Of a stretch of 33,687 nucleotides of DNA, positions 2,230 through 8,121 are shown piece by piece (within the stretch, counting starts at the first letter, position 1; every line of letters begins with the position of its first letter). A program made the translations under genes and the position numbers. The notes beneath the pieces were generated by a model that was given only the letters and a program-made list of their open reading frames with translations, had not been told where the DNA came from and searched no databases. The stretch is taken from IMG/VR virus record IMGVR_UViG_3300025141_000400, positions 1 through 33,687 of that record. The stretch is one strand, 5' to 3'. The DNA is from a virus.

Positions 2230-2520
2230 TTAGAATCTGATAACAACGGTCCAACGACCGGCGATATGATTCCACTTCCACATAAGATGTGGCCTGTGAT
2301 GGGTCATCACCCAGTGGCCACGATAAAAATATACCGAGTGGCTAGTGCGGGCCTTCGATGGGCGAACGGGCTTTTTCACGCTATATTGGTGATGCCGATG
2401 CGTAACATGTTTGTGTGGCACAGGCTTCTTGTGTGCGTGATGCTTGTGCGGTACCGCCTTCTTGGCATCGGCAACGTTGAGCTGTGTTGCCAGCAGCAGT
2501 GCTGTAATTAATGAAGTCAT
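2230..2520 (-). CDS. small His-rich exported protein, function unknown
   Basis: A 96-residue protein that I do not recognise. The first 19 residues (MTSLITALLLATQLNVADA) look like a short secretion signal ending in a possible ADA cleavage site, although the usual basic N-region is absent. The mature part is very basic and has 15 histidines, in HKHHAHKK, HKHVTHRHH and MTHHRPH. The C-terminal part, with RGHWV, MWKWNH and AGRWTVVIRF, recalls the aromatic G-x-W repeats of small periplasmic proteins. Start ATG overlaps the uvsX stop in an ATGA arrangement, so translation is probably coupled to uvsX. Metal or polyanion binding at the cell envelope is a guess. Confidence 0.65.
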   Translation of the reverse strand: MTSLITALLLATQLNVADAKKAVPHKHHAHKKPVPHKHVTHRHHQYSVKKPVRPSKARTSHSVYFYRGHWVMTHHRPHLMWKWNHIAGRWTVVIRF

Positions 2521-3659
2521 GACTTCTCCTTGTGTGGTACTGTTAAATCTTCTGGTTCTGTATAGAAAGCATCGGCGCTTCCTTCGCGTTTATCAAACTT
2601 CTGAATAATCTCTTCATCCATTAGACGCAGAACCCTCTCTTTAAATTCATTATCAGTTGTAATTAGTTGTGTCCACTTTGATGGTTGGAACTTCTTTTCG
2701 TAGTCGTCCAACTTTAACGTATACCACGCACCCGCAGAAGTCAGATGCCCAGATGACTTGATCGCATCAAACCAACTCTCCTCATCTCGGATGCCAATCT
2801 CGTTACCCCAGAGGATACGGAAGGCGCAGGATCTACCCTGAGTTCCAAAGCGAGACTTCTCAAGCTTGATCTTGACCTCCGATCCAATGCGGAACCCCTT
2901 CTCGTCTGTAACGAAAGAAGACTTAGCCTTGCGCCCAGTCAGCCAGATGCGCAAAGAATAAGCATAGTGCATAGCCTTTCCGCCTGGGGTGATGAAGGGC
3001 GTAGTCATCGCGACAATACGCGCTGTCGGCCCCTGTGGGATGTTTGTCTTCAACTGGTTAAGCACGATGAAAGTCGCCTGCTTATCAGCAATAGGGATCG
3101 TCAACTTGGACATCCCCTTTGCGAGAATGCGCGCCTTCATTGCCATCGAAGATTGTGGATTAAAATCGCCTTCTACATCTGAGACAGCAGGCGTGAATGC
3201 CAACGAATCCCAAATTAAAACAAGCTTCTCGTCGGTAGCTCCTAGCAACTCCTCAATAGTTTCTAAGACAAACTCGACGGAGGATGCTTGAACATACATT
3301 AGACGGCTCAAATCGCACCCTGCTTGCTCTAAAAAAGTTGGGTCGATTGCTGATTCAGAATCAAAATATACAACCAATTTTCCTTGTTTCTGGGCGTTTG
3401 CTGCGATCTGTGCAGCCATATAAGATTTGCCTGTGGATTCTAGTCCCGCAATTTCAGTTACTTTACCAACAGGGATGCCTGCGCGTCGACCCTTACAGAT
3501 AATAGAGTCAAGCCAGCGCGAGCCAGTTGGGATCCAATCTTTAACGGAGGTTGGATTGTCTCCGGTCAAGTCGTGCGCGACATTCCGGCCGGCCTTCTTG
3601 TTTACTAATTTCATTAGGTCTTGCATTGCCACGCGACCTGCTTTCGTTTTCTTTGCCAT
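2517..3659 (-). CDS. uvsX: UvsX/RecA-type recombinase
   Basis: Strand-exchange ATPase that forms filaments on ssDNA and drives recombination-dependent replication. At 380 residues it is close to T4 UvsX and RecA. Visible core motifs are Walker A GLESTGKS (72-79), the catalytic-glutamate segment VYFDSE (E102), Walker B LVLIWDS (D151), the VLNQLK strand (N201-Q202, matching RecA INQIR), and the L2-following segment TPGGKAMHYAYSLRIWL. ATG at 3659 has AGAGGG a few bases upstream. A hairpin repeat ends 22 bases before the start. It follows the AIPR-like gene and is coupled to the His-rich gene. Overall length and phage context favour UvsX, although the GGKAMHYA segment is RecA-like. Confidence 0.93.
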   Translation of the reverse strand: MAKKTKAGRVAMQDLMKLVNKKAGRNVAHDLTGDNPTSVKDWIPTGSRWLDSIICKGRRAGIPVGKVTEIAGLESTGKSYMAAQIAANAQKQGKLVVYFDSESAIDPTFLEQAGCDLSRLMYVQASSVEFVLETIEELLGATDEKLVLIWDSLAFTPAVSDVEGDFNPQSSMAMKARILAKGMSKLTIPIADKQATFIVLNQLKTNIPQGPTARIVAMTTPFITPGGKAMHYAYSLRIWLTGRKAKSSFVTDEKGFRIGSEVKIKLEKSRFGTQGRSCAFRILWGNEIGIRDEESWFDAIKSSGHLTSAGAWYTLKLDDYEKKFQPSKWTQLITTDNEFKERVLRLMDEEIIQKFDKREGSADAFYTEPEDLTVPHKEKS

Positions 3660-3717: not shown

Positions 3718-4986
3718 TTATTTCGCCACTAGTGCAAGGCGCGTGCTCCACGTAGGCCTATTGACAACAGTGCGCTGTGCTTCGTTTGAGCAAAGTGCCC
3801 AAAGCGTCTCATCTGCTACAAAATCACCCCAACGATTGTTAAACACTGATGCAAAGTTGCTTTGATAACGAGCCTCAATCTGATCGAGCACCTGCTTTCC
3901 GCATGCAAGCCAAATCGCCTTTAGTTCTGCGATTGTATATTCGGCTACTAGCTTTCCATCTTCTGGACGAAAGGCGTGATTAAGAACCGAATAACATACA
4001 GTGTTTAGCAACTCTTTTGTGAGAGCGTATTCGGTTGATTCCGCATCCTTAAAGGTATAGTTGCAGAACGGCGCTGGGCCCTTCTTAGTGTCCTTGGTAA
4101 TAATCGCGTAGGTGTTCACGCCAGCGCCCAAGATAGTGCGCATCTCGGACTGCACAAAATCTGCAAACTCAAGAATAATATCAATGTGTTCCGAAGCACT
4201 GTTCAGGAGAACACCCTTATCTTCATGAATCCAAAACTTGTTGAGTGCTTCGCGGCCCTTCTTTGGCCAAGAACTGATGTCTCCCAAGCCAGCACCTGTA
4301 ACGTACAGACTAGGAAGCACCGTACCAAGCAAACAAGTTACTTGTCCGACTCCCAGTTCGTTTGGCACCTTCTCGCCGGTCGGAAGCTTTTGATTCTCCT
4401 TCCAACCAATGTGGGTCTCGTCGCAGTAGCTAAGGTTGCCCTTGGCCACGTCAAAGCCGCCAAGAATGTTAATTTCGCTCTTGGACTTCTGCGGCTGGAC
4501 CGCGTTGGCTGCACTCGCAACACCCCGGATCTCATCTTTTGACAAGAAAGCGGTGTTTTCAACCAAATGCAAAGTATATGTCTTGTTACTAGCATCTTCA
4601 TCGTGATTAATAGCGCTATCAGTGCGATCTGCTGAGTGCTGACCATCATAGTGGCCGGCCAGATAGCTGTCAAAAGCCATACTAACGTACCAGCCAGTAG
4701 GGCTGTCCTCGTCTTCATAGATTCTTAGCGAATCGGCATCAATAACGGCGCGCATTCCGCGACACTTGATAGCAAACAGGGGATCATTAAGATAACTGTT
4801 GAAAATCGCTTTGGGGATCTTTCCAGTATCATCCACATCGCGAGGGTTAGGGCCCTTGGGTATATCACATAGCGGATGCTCTGTGTCTGGGCGTGTAAAT
4901 ACGGTATAAAATCGGGCTCCGTTTGGCAGTGTATCATCTGCAATAGAAGTGGGTCCCGAAACCGGAAACTTGATTGTGTTTGTCAT
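3718..4986 (-). CDS. AIPR-like protein (abortive infection phage resistance superfamily)
   Basis: A 422-residue cytoplasmic protein. I assign it to the AIPR superfamily from a remembered succession of motifs, not from a search: FAIKCRGMRAV near 71-81 (family F-x-x-x-N-R-G-I pattern), GHYDGQHS at 111-118 (family D-G-x-H-T), VASAANAVQPQ at 156-166 (family AxNTsxQV), GWKEN at 194-198, the helix ELGVGQVTCLL at 210-220, and the late VLLNSASEH segment. AIPR proteins are known from abortive-infection loci and near restriction-modification systems; their biochemical role is poorly defined. It sits between the lipoprotein and uvsX with a hairpin repeat on each side and only a weak purine-rich site before ATG 4986. 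Related families with DGQHR motifs (DndB-like) are an alternative. Confidence 0.55.
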   Translation of the reverse strand: MTNTIKFPVSGPTSIADDTLPNGARFYTVFTRPDTEHPLCDIPKGPNPRDVDDTGKIPKAIFNSYLNDPLFAIKCRGMRAVIDADSLRIYEDEDSPTGWYVSMAFDSYLAGHYDGQHSADRTDSAINHDEDASNKTYTLHLVENTAFLSKDEIRGVASAANAVQPQKSKSEINILGGFDVAKGNLSYCDETHIGWKENQKLPTGEKVPNELGVGQVTCLLGTVLPSLYVTGAGLGDISSWPKKGREALNKFWIHEDKGVLLNSASEHIDIILEFADFVQSEMRTILGAGVNTYAIITKDTKKGPAPFCNYTFKDAESTEYALTKELLNTVCYSVLNHAFRPEDGKLVAEYTIAELKAIWLACGKQVLDQIEARYQSNFASVFNNRWGDFVADETLWALCSNEAQRTVVNRPTWSTRLALVAK

Positions 4987-5050
4987 TTTTTTCTCTTTTG
5001 TGTTTGTGCTGCCTCTGGTCCCTCTATGGACCGCAGCGGTTGTTAAAAGC

Positions 5051-5084
5051 GGCAGACTTTTTACCGGTCTGCCAGCGGCTTGTT
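5051..5084 (-). repeat. intergenic hairpin repeat, copy B (between lipoprotein and AIPR-like gene)
   Basis: Identical over 34 bases to copy A. It starts 3 bases after the lipoprotein stop and is followed on the minus strand by GCTTTTAAC, a T-tract typical of weak terminators. The 64 bases from here to the AIPR-like ATG hold two small dyads (ACCGC/GCGGT and GGTCC/GGACC) and no promoter that I can see. Confidence 0.8.
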
Positions 5085-5087
5085 GTT

Positions 5088-5186
5088 TTACTCGACGGCG
5101 ACTGCGGTGTCTTCGCCAGTGTCTTCATCAGCGTCTCCGCAGCCACTCATAAGAGCGCATGCGGCGATTAGTACAACGTACTTCAT
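5088..5186 (-). CDS. 32-residue lipoprotein microprotein
   Basis: A short ORF: a basic residue at position 2, a hydrophobic stretch (YVVLIAACALMSG), then Cys16 in the lipobox-like ALMSGC, then an acidic tail CGDADEDTGEDTAVAVE. The ribosome binding site is excellent (AAGGAGG, 5 bases before ATG). If processed by signal peptidase II, only 17 residues anchored by lipid would remain, as in bacteriocin release proteins, Rz1-type spanins or immunity/exclusion lipoproteins, though no homology to any of these is visible. Met at -3 of the lipobox is not the favoured Leu. It sits between two hairpin repeats, upstream of the AIPR-like gene and downstream of the ssDNA-binding protein gene. Confidence 0.7.
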   Translation of the reverse strand: MKYVVLIAACALMSGCGDADEDTGEDTAVAVE

Positions 5187-5202: not shown

Positions 5203-5240
5203 AAATGTGGCAGAGTATTTCAACCCGCTCTGCCATCGGT
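5203..5240 (-). repeat. intergenic hairpin repeat, diverged copy C (before the lipoprotein)
   Basis: Same design as copies A and B with different bases: arms GGCAGAG (minus strand from 5234) and CTCTGCC (to 5209), a 12-base loop, then ACATTTTTCC on the minus strand. The stem ends 22 bases before the lipoprotein ATG, the same distance as copy A to uvsX. It lies about 27 bases after the stop of the ssDNA-binding protein gene. Confidence 0.7.
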
Positions 5241-5261: not shown

Positions 5262-6032
5262 TTAGCCTGTCATCAATTCATCAAACGCACGGTCTACATC
5301 ACTCTTACCATTGGTGGCGCCGTACTTGGCTGTCTCAGAAGAGCGACTTTCTGCGGAAGAACTTCCCGAAAGCTGCTCATCGAGGATTGCGTCGACCTGG
5401 GCGGGACTAAGACGATCGAATAGACCATCAAAATCAGGCATGCGATCGAGGAGGGCGGGGATCGCTTCGCTGTCTGCCAGGAGGGTGGACGTGTTTCGAC
5501 GCATCTTTAGGTTTGTCTGAGGATACGCTCCAGGCTTAGTGGGCTTGGTATAAGTAAGGGTAATGTCCGTACCCTCCTTGATATCAGTGATATCACCATA
5601 CTCGGGATCCAAGATGTACCCCAAGAGAAGCTCGTAAGCCTGCTTTCCGTAGCCGTAGACCTTGATGCCCTCGTCTTCGCGACCACGGATAACAACGGGC
5701 GAGAAATAGCGAGTGCGCACAAAGAGACTCTTCGCGAGCTTCTTGCTCTCCTCATCGTTGTTGTCAACTCCCTCGCGCCAAAGCGAAGAAGCAAATTCAC
5801 ACACGGGGCAGTGCTCGCCAAAGTTGCGCTTTGGACAGAGGATACCTCCGCGATGCTCGCCCACATTATAGTGGAAGAACATTTCCTTCAACGGATCGCC
5901 ATCATTGGTCGGCACGATCCGAATATCTGTATCGCCCTCATCTGGCTTGAACCAGGGTGAGTTTGCATCCTTATTTCCTTCGCCGCGAAGGGATGCGAGC
6001 TTCTGCCGCATCAGTTCCATATTAATTCCCAT
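5262..6032 (-). CDS. 32: single-stranded DNA-binding protein, T4 gp32-like
   Basis: Coats ssDNA at the fork and recruits replication and recombination proteins. I start it at ATG 6032 (256 residues, MGINMELMRQKL...), which has AGGAG 8 bases upstream; an in-frame extension to 6113 would run into the promoter. The zinc-binding signature HRGGILCPKRNFGEHCPVC gives H60, C66, C75 and C78, close to T4 gp32 spacing. The N-terminal MRQKLASLRG resembles the gp32 cooperativity domain. The C-terminus is Ser-rich then acidic (SDVDRAFDELMTG), as in the protein-recruiting tail of gp32. It is first in an operon of lipoprotein, AIPR-like, uvsX and His-rich genes, behind its own promoter. Confidence 0.88.
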   Translation of the reverse strand: MGINMELMRQKLASLRGEGNKDANSPWFKPDEGDTDIRIVPTNDGDPLKEMFFHYNVGEHRGGILCPKRNFGEHCPVCEFASSLWREGVDNNDEESKKLAKSLFVRTRYFSPVVIRGREDEGIKVYGYGKQAYELLLGYILDPEYGDITDIKEGTDITLTYTKPTKPGAYPQTNLKMRRNTSTLLADSEAIPALLDRMPDFDGLFDRLSPAQVDAILDEQLSGSSSAESRSSETAKYGATNGKSDVDRAFDELMTG

Positions 6033-6061
6033 TTTATTTTCTCCTGTTTGTTGGGTAAAGT

Positions 6062-6082
6062 AAATCAAGCTTTCCTTGATTT
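6062..6082 (-). promoter_or_regulatory. perfect dyad at the transcription start of the ssDNA-binding protein gene
   Basis: Arms AAATCAAG and CTTGATTT (8 bases each) with a 5-base centre. The predicted start of transcription (about 6077-6080) falls inside the first arm. It could be an operator overlapping +1, or a 5'-terminal stem-loop on the mRNA. T4 gp32 is known to repress its own translation through a structured leader, so an autoregulatory site is a reasonable inference. Confidence 0.55.
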
Positions 6083-6084
6083 CT

Positions 6085-6113
6085 ATTGTAGAACACTCAA
6101 CGTAGCTTGTCAA
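6085..6113 (-). promoter_or_regulatory. sigma70-type promoter for the ssDNA-binding protein operon
   Basis: Minus strand TTGACA (6108-6113), 17-base spacer, TACAAT (6085-6090). The -35 box overlaps the TGA stop of the tubulin-like gene upstream, marking the join between the late operon and the replication module. Confidence 0.8.
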
Positions 6114-6949
6114 GTGTATTGTTGTATTGCATTAGTGTGGGCAACGCAAAGCCCAAAATCTTGATGATCTGTTTCATATATTGCATAAGAGACTCTACGA
6201 AATGTGTTGCGAGGTTTCTCCTTTAACATGTCAACAATTTTCTTATGCAATCCTCCTTCTTTTTCTAATCTGTCTTTGTTGATACATAGATAATAACACA
6301 GGTCACGCTCCATGTCAAGCTCGTAAAGCCATTTTTCTTCTAAACTTTTCGGATCCAAAAGACCATAAGTTCTAATCCGATTAATCTCTAAAGGCTTTGC
6401 GGTCATTCCAATTTCTGGCTCTGCGTGAGTAAAGTAATTTACATAATGAACAGTTGAAAAAATTGAATCATTAATTTTATCATAATATGTTTTAATGGGG
6501 ATGTCGCCTATTGATTTTTCAATCATAACATTTGAAATAAGAGTAAATGAGTTTAATAGCGCCGATCTAGCGTATTCCTGCAGAACACTAAATACAATCT
6601 TGTCTAGCATTTTTGGAACACCGGTCATCAGCTCTGAATCGGGCTGGATGTAGAATACATCTATCTTTTTATCTTTAAGCTGCTCAAAAATCCCAAGTGA
6701 GTAATTGGAACTAAACGAAGAACCCATTATAAAGAATTGTATATGATCGTCAATTTCAGAAAAAAACTTTCTGACATCGGGAATATTATTTTCATATTCT
6801 TCAGCGGATTCGTAAGATTTAAGCCTAAATTTATATTTTGAGTTTCTTTGAACATGATCGTTCATAACATAGACATTATAATTTTTTGTCTGCTTAAATT
6901 TTTCAGCAATTCTGGTGCCGGCTGTGCCTAGTCCCACGATTGAAATCAT
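6110..6949 (-). CDS. divergent tubulin/FtsZ-like or Rossmann-type nucleotide-binding protein
   Basis: A 279-residue protein. It opens with IVGLGTAGTRIAEKF (T1-like G-x-G-x-x-G loop, residues 4-18), as in FtsZ (GVGGAGGN) or a Rossmann fold. Further on, FFIMGSSFSSNYSLGIFEQL (72-91) occupies the place of the tubulin signature loop (GGGTGTG) but lacks its glycines, followed by DVFYIQP (97-103), comparable to the FtsZ strand that ends in xxTxPF. The rest is helical with no known motif. Tubulin-like phage proteins such as PhuZ centre or move DNA, but polymerisation is unproven here and the degenerate loop argues for loss of GTPase activity. ATG at 6949 overlaps the polymerase stop (ATGA). Confidence 0.45.
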   Translation of the reverse strand: MISIVGLGTAGTRIAEKFKQTKNYNVYVMNDHVQRNSKYKFRLKSYESAEEYENNIPDVRKFFSEIDDHIQFFIMGSSFSSNYSLGIFEQLKDKKIDVFYIQPDSELMTGVPKMLDKIVFSVLQEYARSALLNSFTLISNVMIEKSIGDIPIKTYYDKINDSIFSTVHYVNYFTHAEPEIGMTAKPLEINRIRTYGLLDPKSLEEKWLYELDMERDLCYYLCINKDRLEKEGGLHKKIVDMLKEKPRNTFRRVSYAIYETDHQDFGLCVAHTNAIQQYT

Positions 6950-8121
6950 AACTTTATCTCATTCAGGTTATAATAATCTTTTCCAGCTCTGAGATTTGCA
7001 AGATAGCCGTCCTCAAAAACATCTCTCAACCCAATAACCATATCTCTGTCATGATCAGAATAATCAATCACAATTTCATCATGAACAATGTGAGAGATAA
7101 AAGATTTTTTACCCTCAAGCATCTTATCAATGATAACTGCCTTTTGCAATACACGATCAGCAGTGGTGCTTTGAATAAGGTAATTTAGTGCTTTACGCGG
7201 CTGTACTTTGATTTTGCGGCCATATGGAGTATGAACATAGCTATCTTTGTAATAAGTTTCAAGAACTTTTTCACGATCATAATAATTTGAATCAATATCG
7301 TTTGATTCTGGATTATATAACCATGCGAAGAAAAAGAGCTTTGCTTCCTCGCGAGTCATCTCTAAATCGTTTATAACATTCTGTATGTTCCATTCGTGAA
7401 CATCGTACTCTGGTTGCTCCTGGCCACACAAATCTAACAACGTGCGAATTTCAGCACCATTATAATCAAAGCTCATCATTAAGTCATTATGGGGCTTTAT
7501 TATACGCCTCAAATCTTTTTGCAAATTTAAAATTGGAAAAGAGCCTGGATGCGTTGCAAGGCGGCCGGTAATTGTTCCAAACATGTTGTAATCAATTGTT
7601 TTGTAGTTCTTCATCAGTTCTTGAATTTTCTGCCGATTCATTGAAGAATAAAATAGGTGCTTACAATCTTCGCTATTCAAATTCAAGCGCTGATACCTAA
7701 TCTTGTGAAGCAGCCTATACACAGCGCTTAAGTGATCATAGTTTTCTGGCTTATCGTATGTCTGAAAAACGTGTGCAGTTACTTTATTTTTAATCTCGCA
7801 AAAGCGCACAAGGAAATCATGAGGAATCAGATCAAACACACAATGATCCATCATGTTAACCTTTGCAATTTCAAAAGACTTAAGGTAAGCTTTCATTTTT
7901 CTTTGGACGGCCTGAAGTTCATTACACAAATCTTCTGGGCAGCAATCGGCAATATTGCGCCCTCCAGCATGGATCCAGGCATACTCCACCGAGGGGTCTG
8001 TAATTGATGCGCTATAGCGCCACGTTCTTGTTAGGTTTTCTGGAAAATCCTCAAACGACAGCTTGCCGTCTGCGTAAATTCCAATGCATTCTGACTTGTC
8101 ATCAAGTGCTTGAAATATCAA
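6946..8121 (-). CDS. minimal family A DNA polymerase (palm and fingers, no proofreading domain)
   Basis: A 391-residue PolA-type polymerase. TITGRLATHPGSFPILNLQ (183-201) matches the Pol I TGRLSS...PNLQ block. Motif A is FDYNGAEIR (D219, E224, R226). Motif B is REEAKLFFFAWLYN (R257, K261, F265, Y269; the usual Gly after Tyr is Asn). YGRKI...ALNYLIQSTTADRV matches GRRR...NxxxQGTAAD. Motif C is HDEI (347-350). The N-terminal 180 residues show no DEDD exonuclease or 5'-nuclease motifs. T4 itself uses a family B polymerase. The start is TTG 8121, overlapping the upstream TGA with GGGGGTGG just before; the next Met is residue 90. It sits at the end of the virion-gene operon. Confidence 0.85.
   Translation of the reverse strand: MIFQALDDKSECIGIYADGKLSFEDFPENLTRTWRYSASITDPSVEYAWIHAGGRNIADCCPEDLCNELQAVQRKMKAYLKSFEIAKVNMMDHCVFDLIPHDFLVRFCEIKNKVTAHVFQTYDKPENYDHLSAVYRLLHKIRYQRLNLNSEDCKHLFYSSMNRQKIQELMKNYKTIDYNMFGTITGRLATHPGSFPILNLQKDLRRIIKPHNDLMMSFDYNGAEIRTLLDLCGQEQPEYDVHEWNIQNVINDLEMTREEAKLFFFAWLYNPESNDIDSNYYDREKVLETYYKDSYVHTPYGRKIKVQPRKALNYLIQSTTADRVLQKAVIIDKMLEGKKSFISHIVHDEIVIDYSDHDRDMVIGLRDVFEDGYLANLRAGKDYYNLNEIKL

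What the first reader, a model, noticed from the sequence alone, without database searches (positions are those of the whole stretch)
3718..4986. AIPR-like (abortive-infection-type) gene inside a phage recombination operon
The 422-residue protein shows the succession of motifs I recall for the AIPR superfamily (RG near 76, DGQH at 114-117, AANAVQPQ at 159-166). Known family members are linked to host abortive-infection and restriction loci. Here it lies between gp32-like and uvsX genes, where T4-like phages normally have none. Possible roles: excluding competing phages, blocking a host defence as a decoy, or a DNA-repair role that explains the family.
Basis: partly seen in the sequence, partly recalled or inferred. 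Interest (0 to 1): 0.78.

Follow-up and report, generated by a model that had tools for sequence, protein, structure and literature searches.

The report
Phage AIPR protein with RNA leader
A marine phage carries a distant member of a protein family known from bacterial anti-phage systems, in a gene-swapping site between two DNA-replication genes, and the mRNA just before this gene folds into a hairpin that related phages have kept although their letters differ, which suggests that the phage tightly controls the protein.

Summary
ORF 3718-4986 (minus strand, 422 aa) has no Pfam, NCBIfam or PADLOC hit of its own. As a 27-member family profile it matches bona fide AIPR proteins along most of its length (hhalign E 9.8e-16). 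Its N-terminal domain is predicted to have the ParB/sulfiredoxin fold, with DGQH at the nucleotide-binding motif. All 39 homologous loci found lie at the gp32-uvsX locus of uncultivated marine phages. That interval is a cargo hotspot (63 to about 3,500 bp): close relatives carry nothing, adenine methylases, a GHKL ATPase, an SF2 helicase or nuclease-like genes. In 10 of 22 AIPR clusters a D12 adenine methylase follows. Two things are new: 40-nt direct repeats containing terminator hairpins flank the gene (empty relatives have one copy), and a covarying bulged RNA hairpin sits 21-36 nt upstream of AIPR-like start codons in 13 of 21 testable clusters and nowhere else searched; Rfam has no match. 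Best reading: an NTP-binding DNA-conflict effector, often paired with a methylase and limited by its own RNA leader. Fold, family, hotspot and RNA structure are shown computationally; the activity and the leader's ligand are inferred.

The parts
3718..4986 (-). AIPR-like gene, 422 aa (ParB/Srx-fold N-terminal domain plus helical C-terminal region)
4483..4935 (-). codons ~18-168: predicted ParB/sulfiredoxin-fold NTP-binding domain
   Evidence: every PDB row with Z>=2 for the domain alone is ParB, Noc or sulfiredoxin
4636..4647 (-). DGQH motif (residues 114-117), counterpart of DGQHR/DGQQR and Srx GCHR nucleotide-binding motifs
   Evidence: invariant in 27 homologs; motif equivalence after PMC4619093
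5008..5037 (-). leader RNA hairpin: 5-bp outer and 5-bp inner stem, loop AUAGAG, 4-nt 3' bulge AGAG; 21 nt before the start codon
3676..3715 (-). direct repeat copy 2 (40 nt) with terminator-like hairpin, between the AIPR-like gene and uvsX
5045..5084 (-). direct repeat copy 1 (40 nt, 95% identical) with terminator-like hairpin, upstream of the leader
5088..5186 (-). 32-codon lipoprotein-like ORF (MKYVVLIAACALMSGCGDADEDTGEDTAVAVE) that also stands in the empty alleles
   Evidence: alignment, sequence
5208..5235 (-). hairpin after gp32 (GGCAGAG...CTCTGCC then U-rich), conserved in relatives
5262..6113 (-). gp32-like single-strand DNA-binding protein, upstream flank of the hotspot
2517..3659 (-). 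UvsX/RecA-like recombinase, downstream flank of the hotspot

Best explanation
The ORF encodes a divergent phage subfamily of the AIPR/DndB branch of ParB/sulfiredoxin-fold proteins. It is a swappable cargo gene in a hotspot between gp32 and uvsX. Shown here by computation: family membership, predicted fold, conserved DGQH pocket motif, cassette boundaries, site-specific turnover, frequent coupling to a D12 adenine-DNA methylase, and a conserved leader hairpin. Inferred: the protein binds an NTP and acts on DNA or on the nucleotide pool during phage replication as a restriction-like conflict effector, aimed at host or rival-phage DNA or at a host defence; where a methylase accompanies it, methylation marks phage DNA as self; and because surplus protein would be harmful, its translation is limited by the hairpin, most simply through the protein binding its own leader.
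For: Family: hhalign to real AIPRs E 9.8e-16, sister hits to PF10592, best viral structure match 'AIPR protein' E 2.6e-6. Fold: the N-domain alone matches only ParB, Noc and Srx (best Z 6.9). NTP binding is an established property of this fold, including a DndB-like protein that binds ATP and GTP (PMC12704722). Hotspot cargo typical of R-M and anti-phage systems: D12 methylases, a GHKL ATPase, an SF2 helicase, PD-(D/E)XK-like ORFs. D12 methylase downstream in 10 of 22 AIPR clusters, often overlapping by 4 nt. Known bacterial AIPRs sit in R-M and MORC operons (PMC2292703). Leader: 98% of cells paired, 9 of 10 pairs with double changes, covariation 0.83 against 0.26 shuffled; one copy per record, only before AIPR-like genes. 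Purifying selection.
Against: No activity is shown. The window and 11 other clusters have no adjacent methylase (in one of them the contig ends), and none was found in 50-84 kb of three such phages (the records are fragments). Bacterial AIPR proteins themselves lack a defined biochemistry. The leader model does not match in 8 of 21 testable clusters, so it is not obligatory. That the protein itself is the ligand of the hairpin is parsimony only. VIA Z-scores are moderate, and plain Foldseek against PDB is not significant.
Confidence: 0.5

Rival explanations
1. Counter-defence: the protein is an inhibitor, decoy or NTP-consuming antagonist of a host AIPR/MZA/Dnd-type system, borrowed from that system, not an effector against DNA.
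For: AIPR is a component of bacterial anti-phage and R-M operons; cargo turnover between close relatives is typical of arms-race genes; solo copies without a methylase exist.
Against: The DGQH pocket and about 20 other residues stay invariant, more than a decoy needs; methylase coupling is not explained.
Confidence: 0.22
2. DNA-modification accessory: like DndB or DpdB, it is an ATPase or regulator that assists a DNA-modifying enzyme (here often the D12 methylase) so that the phage genome escapes restriction.
For: DpdB, a ParB-like ATPase, drives base insertion (PMC12839542); DndB is an ATP-binding regulator; translational coupling to D12 methylases; phage ParB-fold domains are often fused to methylases.
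Against: 12 of 22 clusters have no adjacent methylase (in one, L090, the contig ends); the window has no D12 gene.
Confidence: 0.18
3. Core recombination/repair helper of UvsX and gp32.
For: Sits between gp32 and uvsX on the same strand in nearly all homologous loci.
Against: Phages with 90-96% identical gp32 and 92-96% identical UvsX lack it or carry unrelated cargo; its identity does not track core genes.
Confidence: 0.06
4. RNase toxin of the HEPN type (classical abortive infection).
For: AIPR proteins were described as carrying an N-terminal HEPN domain (PMC3506569).
Against: The N-domain is ParB/Srx, and no R-x4-6-H pair is invariant in 27 homologs; the only invariant histidines are H112 and H117.
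Confidence: 0.04

Closest known systems
AIPR family (PF10592), e.g. Nostoc, Calothrix and Lactiplantibacillus plasmid proteins; MzaE of the MZA anti-phage system
   Same: Whole motif succession and domain order; hhalign E 9.8e-16 over 316 columns
   Different: Single sequence has no Pfam hit; GHYDGQH in place of NGGHT; phage replication locus; own RNA leader; D12 methylase partner, while the related R-M/MORC operons mostly have cytosine methylases (PMC2292703)
DndB / DpdB / DUF262 (GmrS) DGQHR proteins
   Same: ParB/Srx fold, DGQH(R)/DGQQR pocket motif, links to DNA modification and restriction
   Different: No dnd, dpd or GmrD genes recognised nearby; different C-terminal region
ParB/Noc CTPases and sulfiredoxin
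   Same: Fold of the N-terminal domain
   Different: About 12% identity; no Pfam hit to any ParB domain model
P2/P4 phage and satellite defence hotspots (PMC9122126)
   Same: Fixed site with rapidly changing defence-like cargo, AIPR among it
   Different: Those are temperate or satellite elements; here the site lies inside the replication-recombination operon of T4-like phages with uvsX and gp32
PeSL cassettes of T4-type phages (Arbiol 2010, Comeau 2014, cited in PMC4503421)
   Same: Stem-loop repeats between genes as points of cassette exchange
   Different: Here terminator-like hairpins only; no early promoter was recognised

Membership tests
AIPR (PF10592) | Score above the curated Pfam cut-off (25 bits) for the single sequence | tested here: not met
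   Window protein 0 hits; L071 sister 19.4 bits; best member of 27 E 8e-6
AIPR (PF10592) | Profile-level homology across most of the AIPR domain | tested here: met
   hhalign of 27 homologs with six AIPRs (each over cut-off): prob 98.6, E 9.8e-16, 316 columns; N-domain alone E 1.1e-13
AIPR (PF10592) | Demonstrated abortive-infection or anti-phage activity | not testable with these tools
   Needs plating assays
ParB/sulfiredoxin fold superfamily | Fold of the N-terminal domain | tested here: met
   VIA Z 4.6-6.9; all seven rows are ParB, Noc or Srx; moderate Z, and plain Foldseek is not significant
ParB/sulfiredoxin fold superfamily | NTP binding through the DGQH(R)-type motif | not testable with these tools
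   Motif invariant; binding needs DRaCALA or ITC
MZA (MORC-Z1-AIPR) system | AIPR with MutL/MORC ATPase, Z1 helicase and nuclease in one operon | tested here: not met
   No locus examined holds the full set; GHKL ATPase, SF2 helicase and nuclease-like genes occur as alternative cargo at the same site; only a weak MzaE hit, E 0.08
HEPN RNase | Conserved R-x4-6-H | tested here: not met
   No such invariant pair in A2
T4-like standard replication protein | Match to a known T4-like replication family | tested here: not met
   Pfam 0 hits; PHROGs only one weak unknown, E 0.03
Rfam families | Leader hairpin matches a described RNA family | tested here: not met
   No match at 5008-5037 and none in six homologous loci

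The most novel reading that the evidence does not exclude
A phage module not described before: an AIPR/ParB-fold effector whose translation is held down by the protein binding a dedicated mRNA hairpin with two AGAK sites (loop and bulge), commonly with an adenine methylase as self-marking partner, exchanged as a terminator-bounded cassette in a phage-borne R-M-like hotspot.
Probability: 0.3. Interest if true: 0.8.

Novelty: new variant of a known kind. Interest (0 to 1): 0.62.

Why it matters
AIPR proteins are common in bacterial defence loci but their biochemistry is unknown. A phage subfamily with a clear ParB/Srx pocket, a methylase partner and a private RNA operator gives concrete, testable handles: which NTP, which nucleic acid, which self-mark. 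It also shows replication operons of marine phages carrying defence-type cargo, and adds a cis-regulatory RNA that Rfam does not hold.

Tried and rejected
Single-sequence Pfam, PHROGs, PADLOC and NCBIfam searches gave nothing useful. tblastn against cultured phages found no homolog; scanning 84,980 bacterial and archaeal genomes with two peptide patterns found none. PDB sequence-profile search: noise. Plain Foldseek against PDB: not significant. Other hotspot occupants with DGxHR-like strings (L025, L049, L043, L074) were tested as ParB/AIPR relatives by hhalign and are not detectable as such. The C-terminal region matched only generic helical proteins, so its fold stays undetermined. HEPN rejected by motif. 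A core repair role disfavoured by turnover. R1 does not match upstream of cyanobacterial and other plasmid AIPRs (L120-L125), best E 0.34. Two weak snoRNA Rfam matches in the window are below the curated cut-offs.

Full report
Observation. The ORF is real, on the minus strand, with the motifs at the stated residues, between a gp32-like SSB and a UvsX-like recombinase. The window is a 33.7-kb virus record with T4-type baseplate and tail-tube genes.

Homologs. Alone, the protein has no curated-family hit. A scan of IMG/VR with a four-member alignment found 39 loci encoding relatives; the complete ones fall into 22 clusters at 90% identity. All lie at the gp32-uvsX locus; in two the gene sits just after uvsX. 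A second scan with the 27-member alignment and a scan with L107 added no new contigs. None was found in the 50,697 phage records held.

Family and fold. Some sisters touch PF10592. A plasmid protein from Calothrix, reached by weak tblastn, is a bona fide AIPR (87 bits) and led to five more. Profile-profile comparison gives prob 98.6, E 9.8e-16 over 316 columns. AlphaFold2 on 27 homologs gives pLDDT 89.5. The best viral structure match is an 'AIPR protein' (E 2.6e-6), and phage sulfur-modification (DndB-like) and ParB proteins also appear. The N-terminal domain modelled alone (pLDDT 89.7) yields only ParB, Noc and sulfiredoxin among rows with Z>=2. This agrees with published views: DndB's N-terminal domain was placed in the AbiU1/AIPR family (PMC3506569), and DUF262 and DGQHR/DndB domains were tied to the ParB/Srx fold (PMC4619093). 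Bacterial AIPRs are listed in R-M and MORC gene neighbourhoods (PMC2292703), and AIPR-bearing operons resemble the mzaABCDE defence system (PMC9523054).

Hotspot. In about 60 relatives with both flanks, the gp32-uvsX interval ranges from 63 to 3,493 bp. Relatives with gp32 at least 88% identical hold only the small lipoprotein-like ORF, nothing at all, a CxxCxxCC protein, a D12 methylase with SF2 helicase and a 246-aa protein, a GHKL ATPase, or AIPR+D12 methylase. Other occupants include a PD-(D/E)XK-like ORF next to a D12 methylase (motif by eye, alignment). L102 has methylase, AIPR-like, methylase and a nuclease-like gene in a row. AIPR identity does not track core-gene identity: L107 has 91% identical gp32 and 94% identical UvsX but only 27% identical AIPR-like protein. 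The nearest cultured synteny found, in Microcystis phage Mel-JY01, has nothing between the two genes.

Cassette. The gene is flanked by a 40-nt direct repeat (95% identical), each copy a terminator-like hairpin. Empty alleles have one copy at the matching place. This looks like insertion or excision by recombination between terminators, comparable to PeSL shuffling in T4-type phages (cited in PMC4503421). The event itself is inferred.

RNA leader. Directly upstream of the ribosome-binding region lies GCUGC-GGUCC-AUAGAG-GGACC-AGAG-GCAGC (fold z -5.5 in a 66-nt stretch). A structural descriptor finds it once in the window and 29 times in 2.1 Mb of strand-sequence from relatives; all but one of the hits lie at AIPR-like genes, typically 21-36 nt upstream of the start codon. 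On 13 aligned examples, 98% of cells pair, 9 of 10 pairs have double changes, covariation is 0.83 against 0.26 in shuffles and at most 0.17 when slid. The examples were partly chosen by pairing, so the positional specificity is the stronger argument. The covariance model finds 24 loci at E<0.05 in 758 kb, all upstream of AIPR-like genes, including L096, L111 and L114, which were not used to build it. In 23 whole records it occurs once per record or not at all at significant E; 115-kb and 196-kb relatives without the gene have none. It is missing in 8 of 21 testable clusters even with filters off, though AIPR-like genes in general have more structured leaders than other genes in the same loci (P 1e-4). 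No Rfam family matches. Since gp32 and uvsX lack it and it goes with the gene in both AIPR lineages, the simplest ligand is the protein itself. This is untested.

Methylase link. In 10 of 22 clusters a D12 adenine methylase follows, in most directly and often with a 4-nt overlap, drawn from at least two methylase subfamilies. The window belongs to the solo type. No D12 gene was found in the window record or in 50-84 kb of three other solo phages, so the AIPR-like protein can probably act without its own methylase.

Mechanism. Shown: homology, predicted fold, motif conservation, site specificity, turnover, leader structure. From knowledge of the fold: NTP binding is likely (PMC12704722). Inferred: a conflict effector acting on DNA or nucleotides, self-marked by methylation in some phages and limited by its leader. 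Counter-defence and modification-accessory roles remain open.

Noticed in passing
5088-5186 (minus): 32-codon ORF with a signal peptide and lipobox-like LMSGC, conserved in empty alleles between gp32 and uvsX; absent in L011 and L016.
   Followed up: partly
L035:6266-7375, L047:11177-12286, L052:2759-3868, L102:3887-4933: ORFs with a PD-(D/E)XK-like core (GSDxxI...IELKT...DFGQFR) directly after a D12 methylase: possible R-M pairs carried by these phages. No Pfam hit for L035 and no PDB hit for L102.
   Followed up: partly
L017:8968-12271 and L025:2277-4773: A 246-aa protein of unknown fold is shared by a methylase+SF2 helicase module and a DGDHR protein+methylase module: the partner genes seem interchangeable.
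   Followed up: no
6110-6949 (minus): 279-aa protein conserved between polA and gp32, with GLGxAG near the N-terminus and GSSxSSNYS further on; perhaps Rossmann- or tubulin/FtsZ-like. A PDB profile search found nothing.
   Followed up: partly
6946-8121 (minus): Family A DNA polymerase of only 391 aa, apparently a polymerase domain without an exonuclease domain.
   Followed up: no
L161:3899-4927 (Bacillus phage vB_BmeM-Goe8): An annotated 'putative AIPR protein', the only one found among isolated cultured phages; it lies near a tRNA-His guanylyltransferase-like gene, a sigma factor and RtcB, not near recombination genes.
   Followed up: partly
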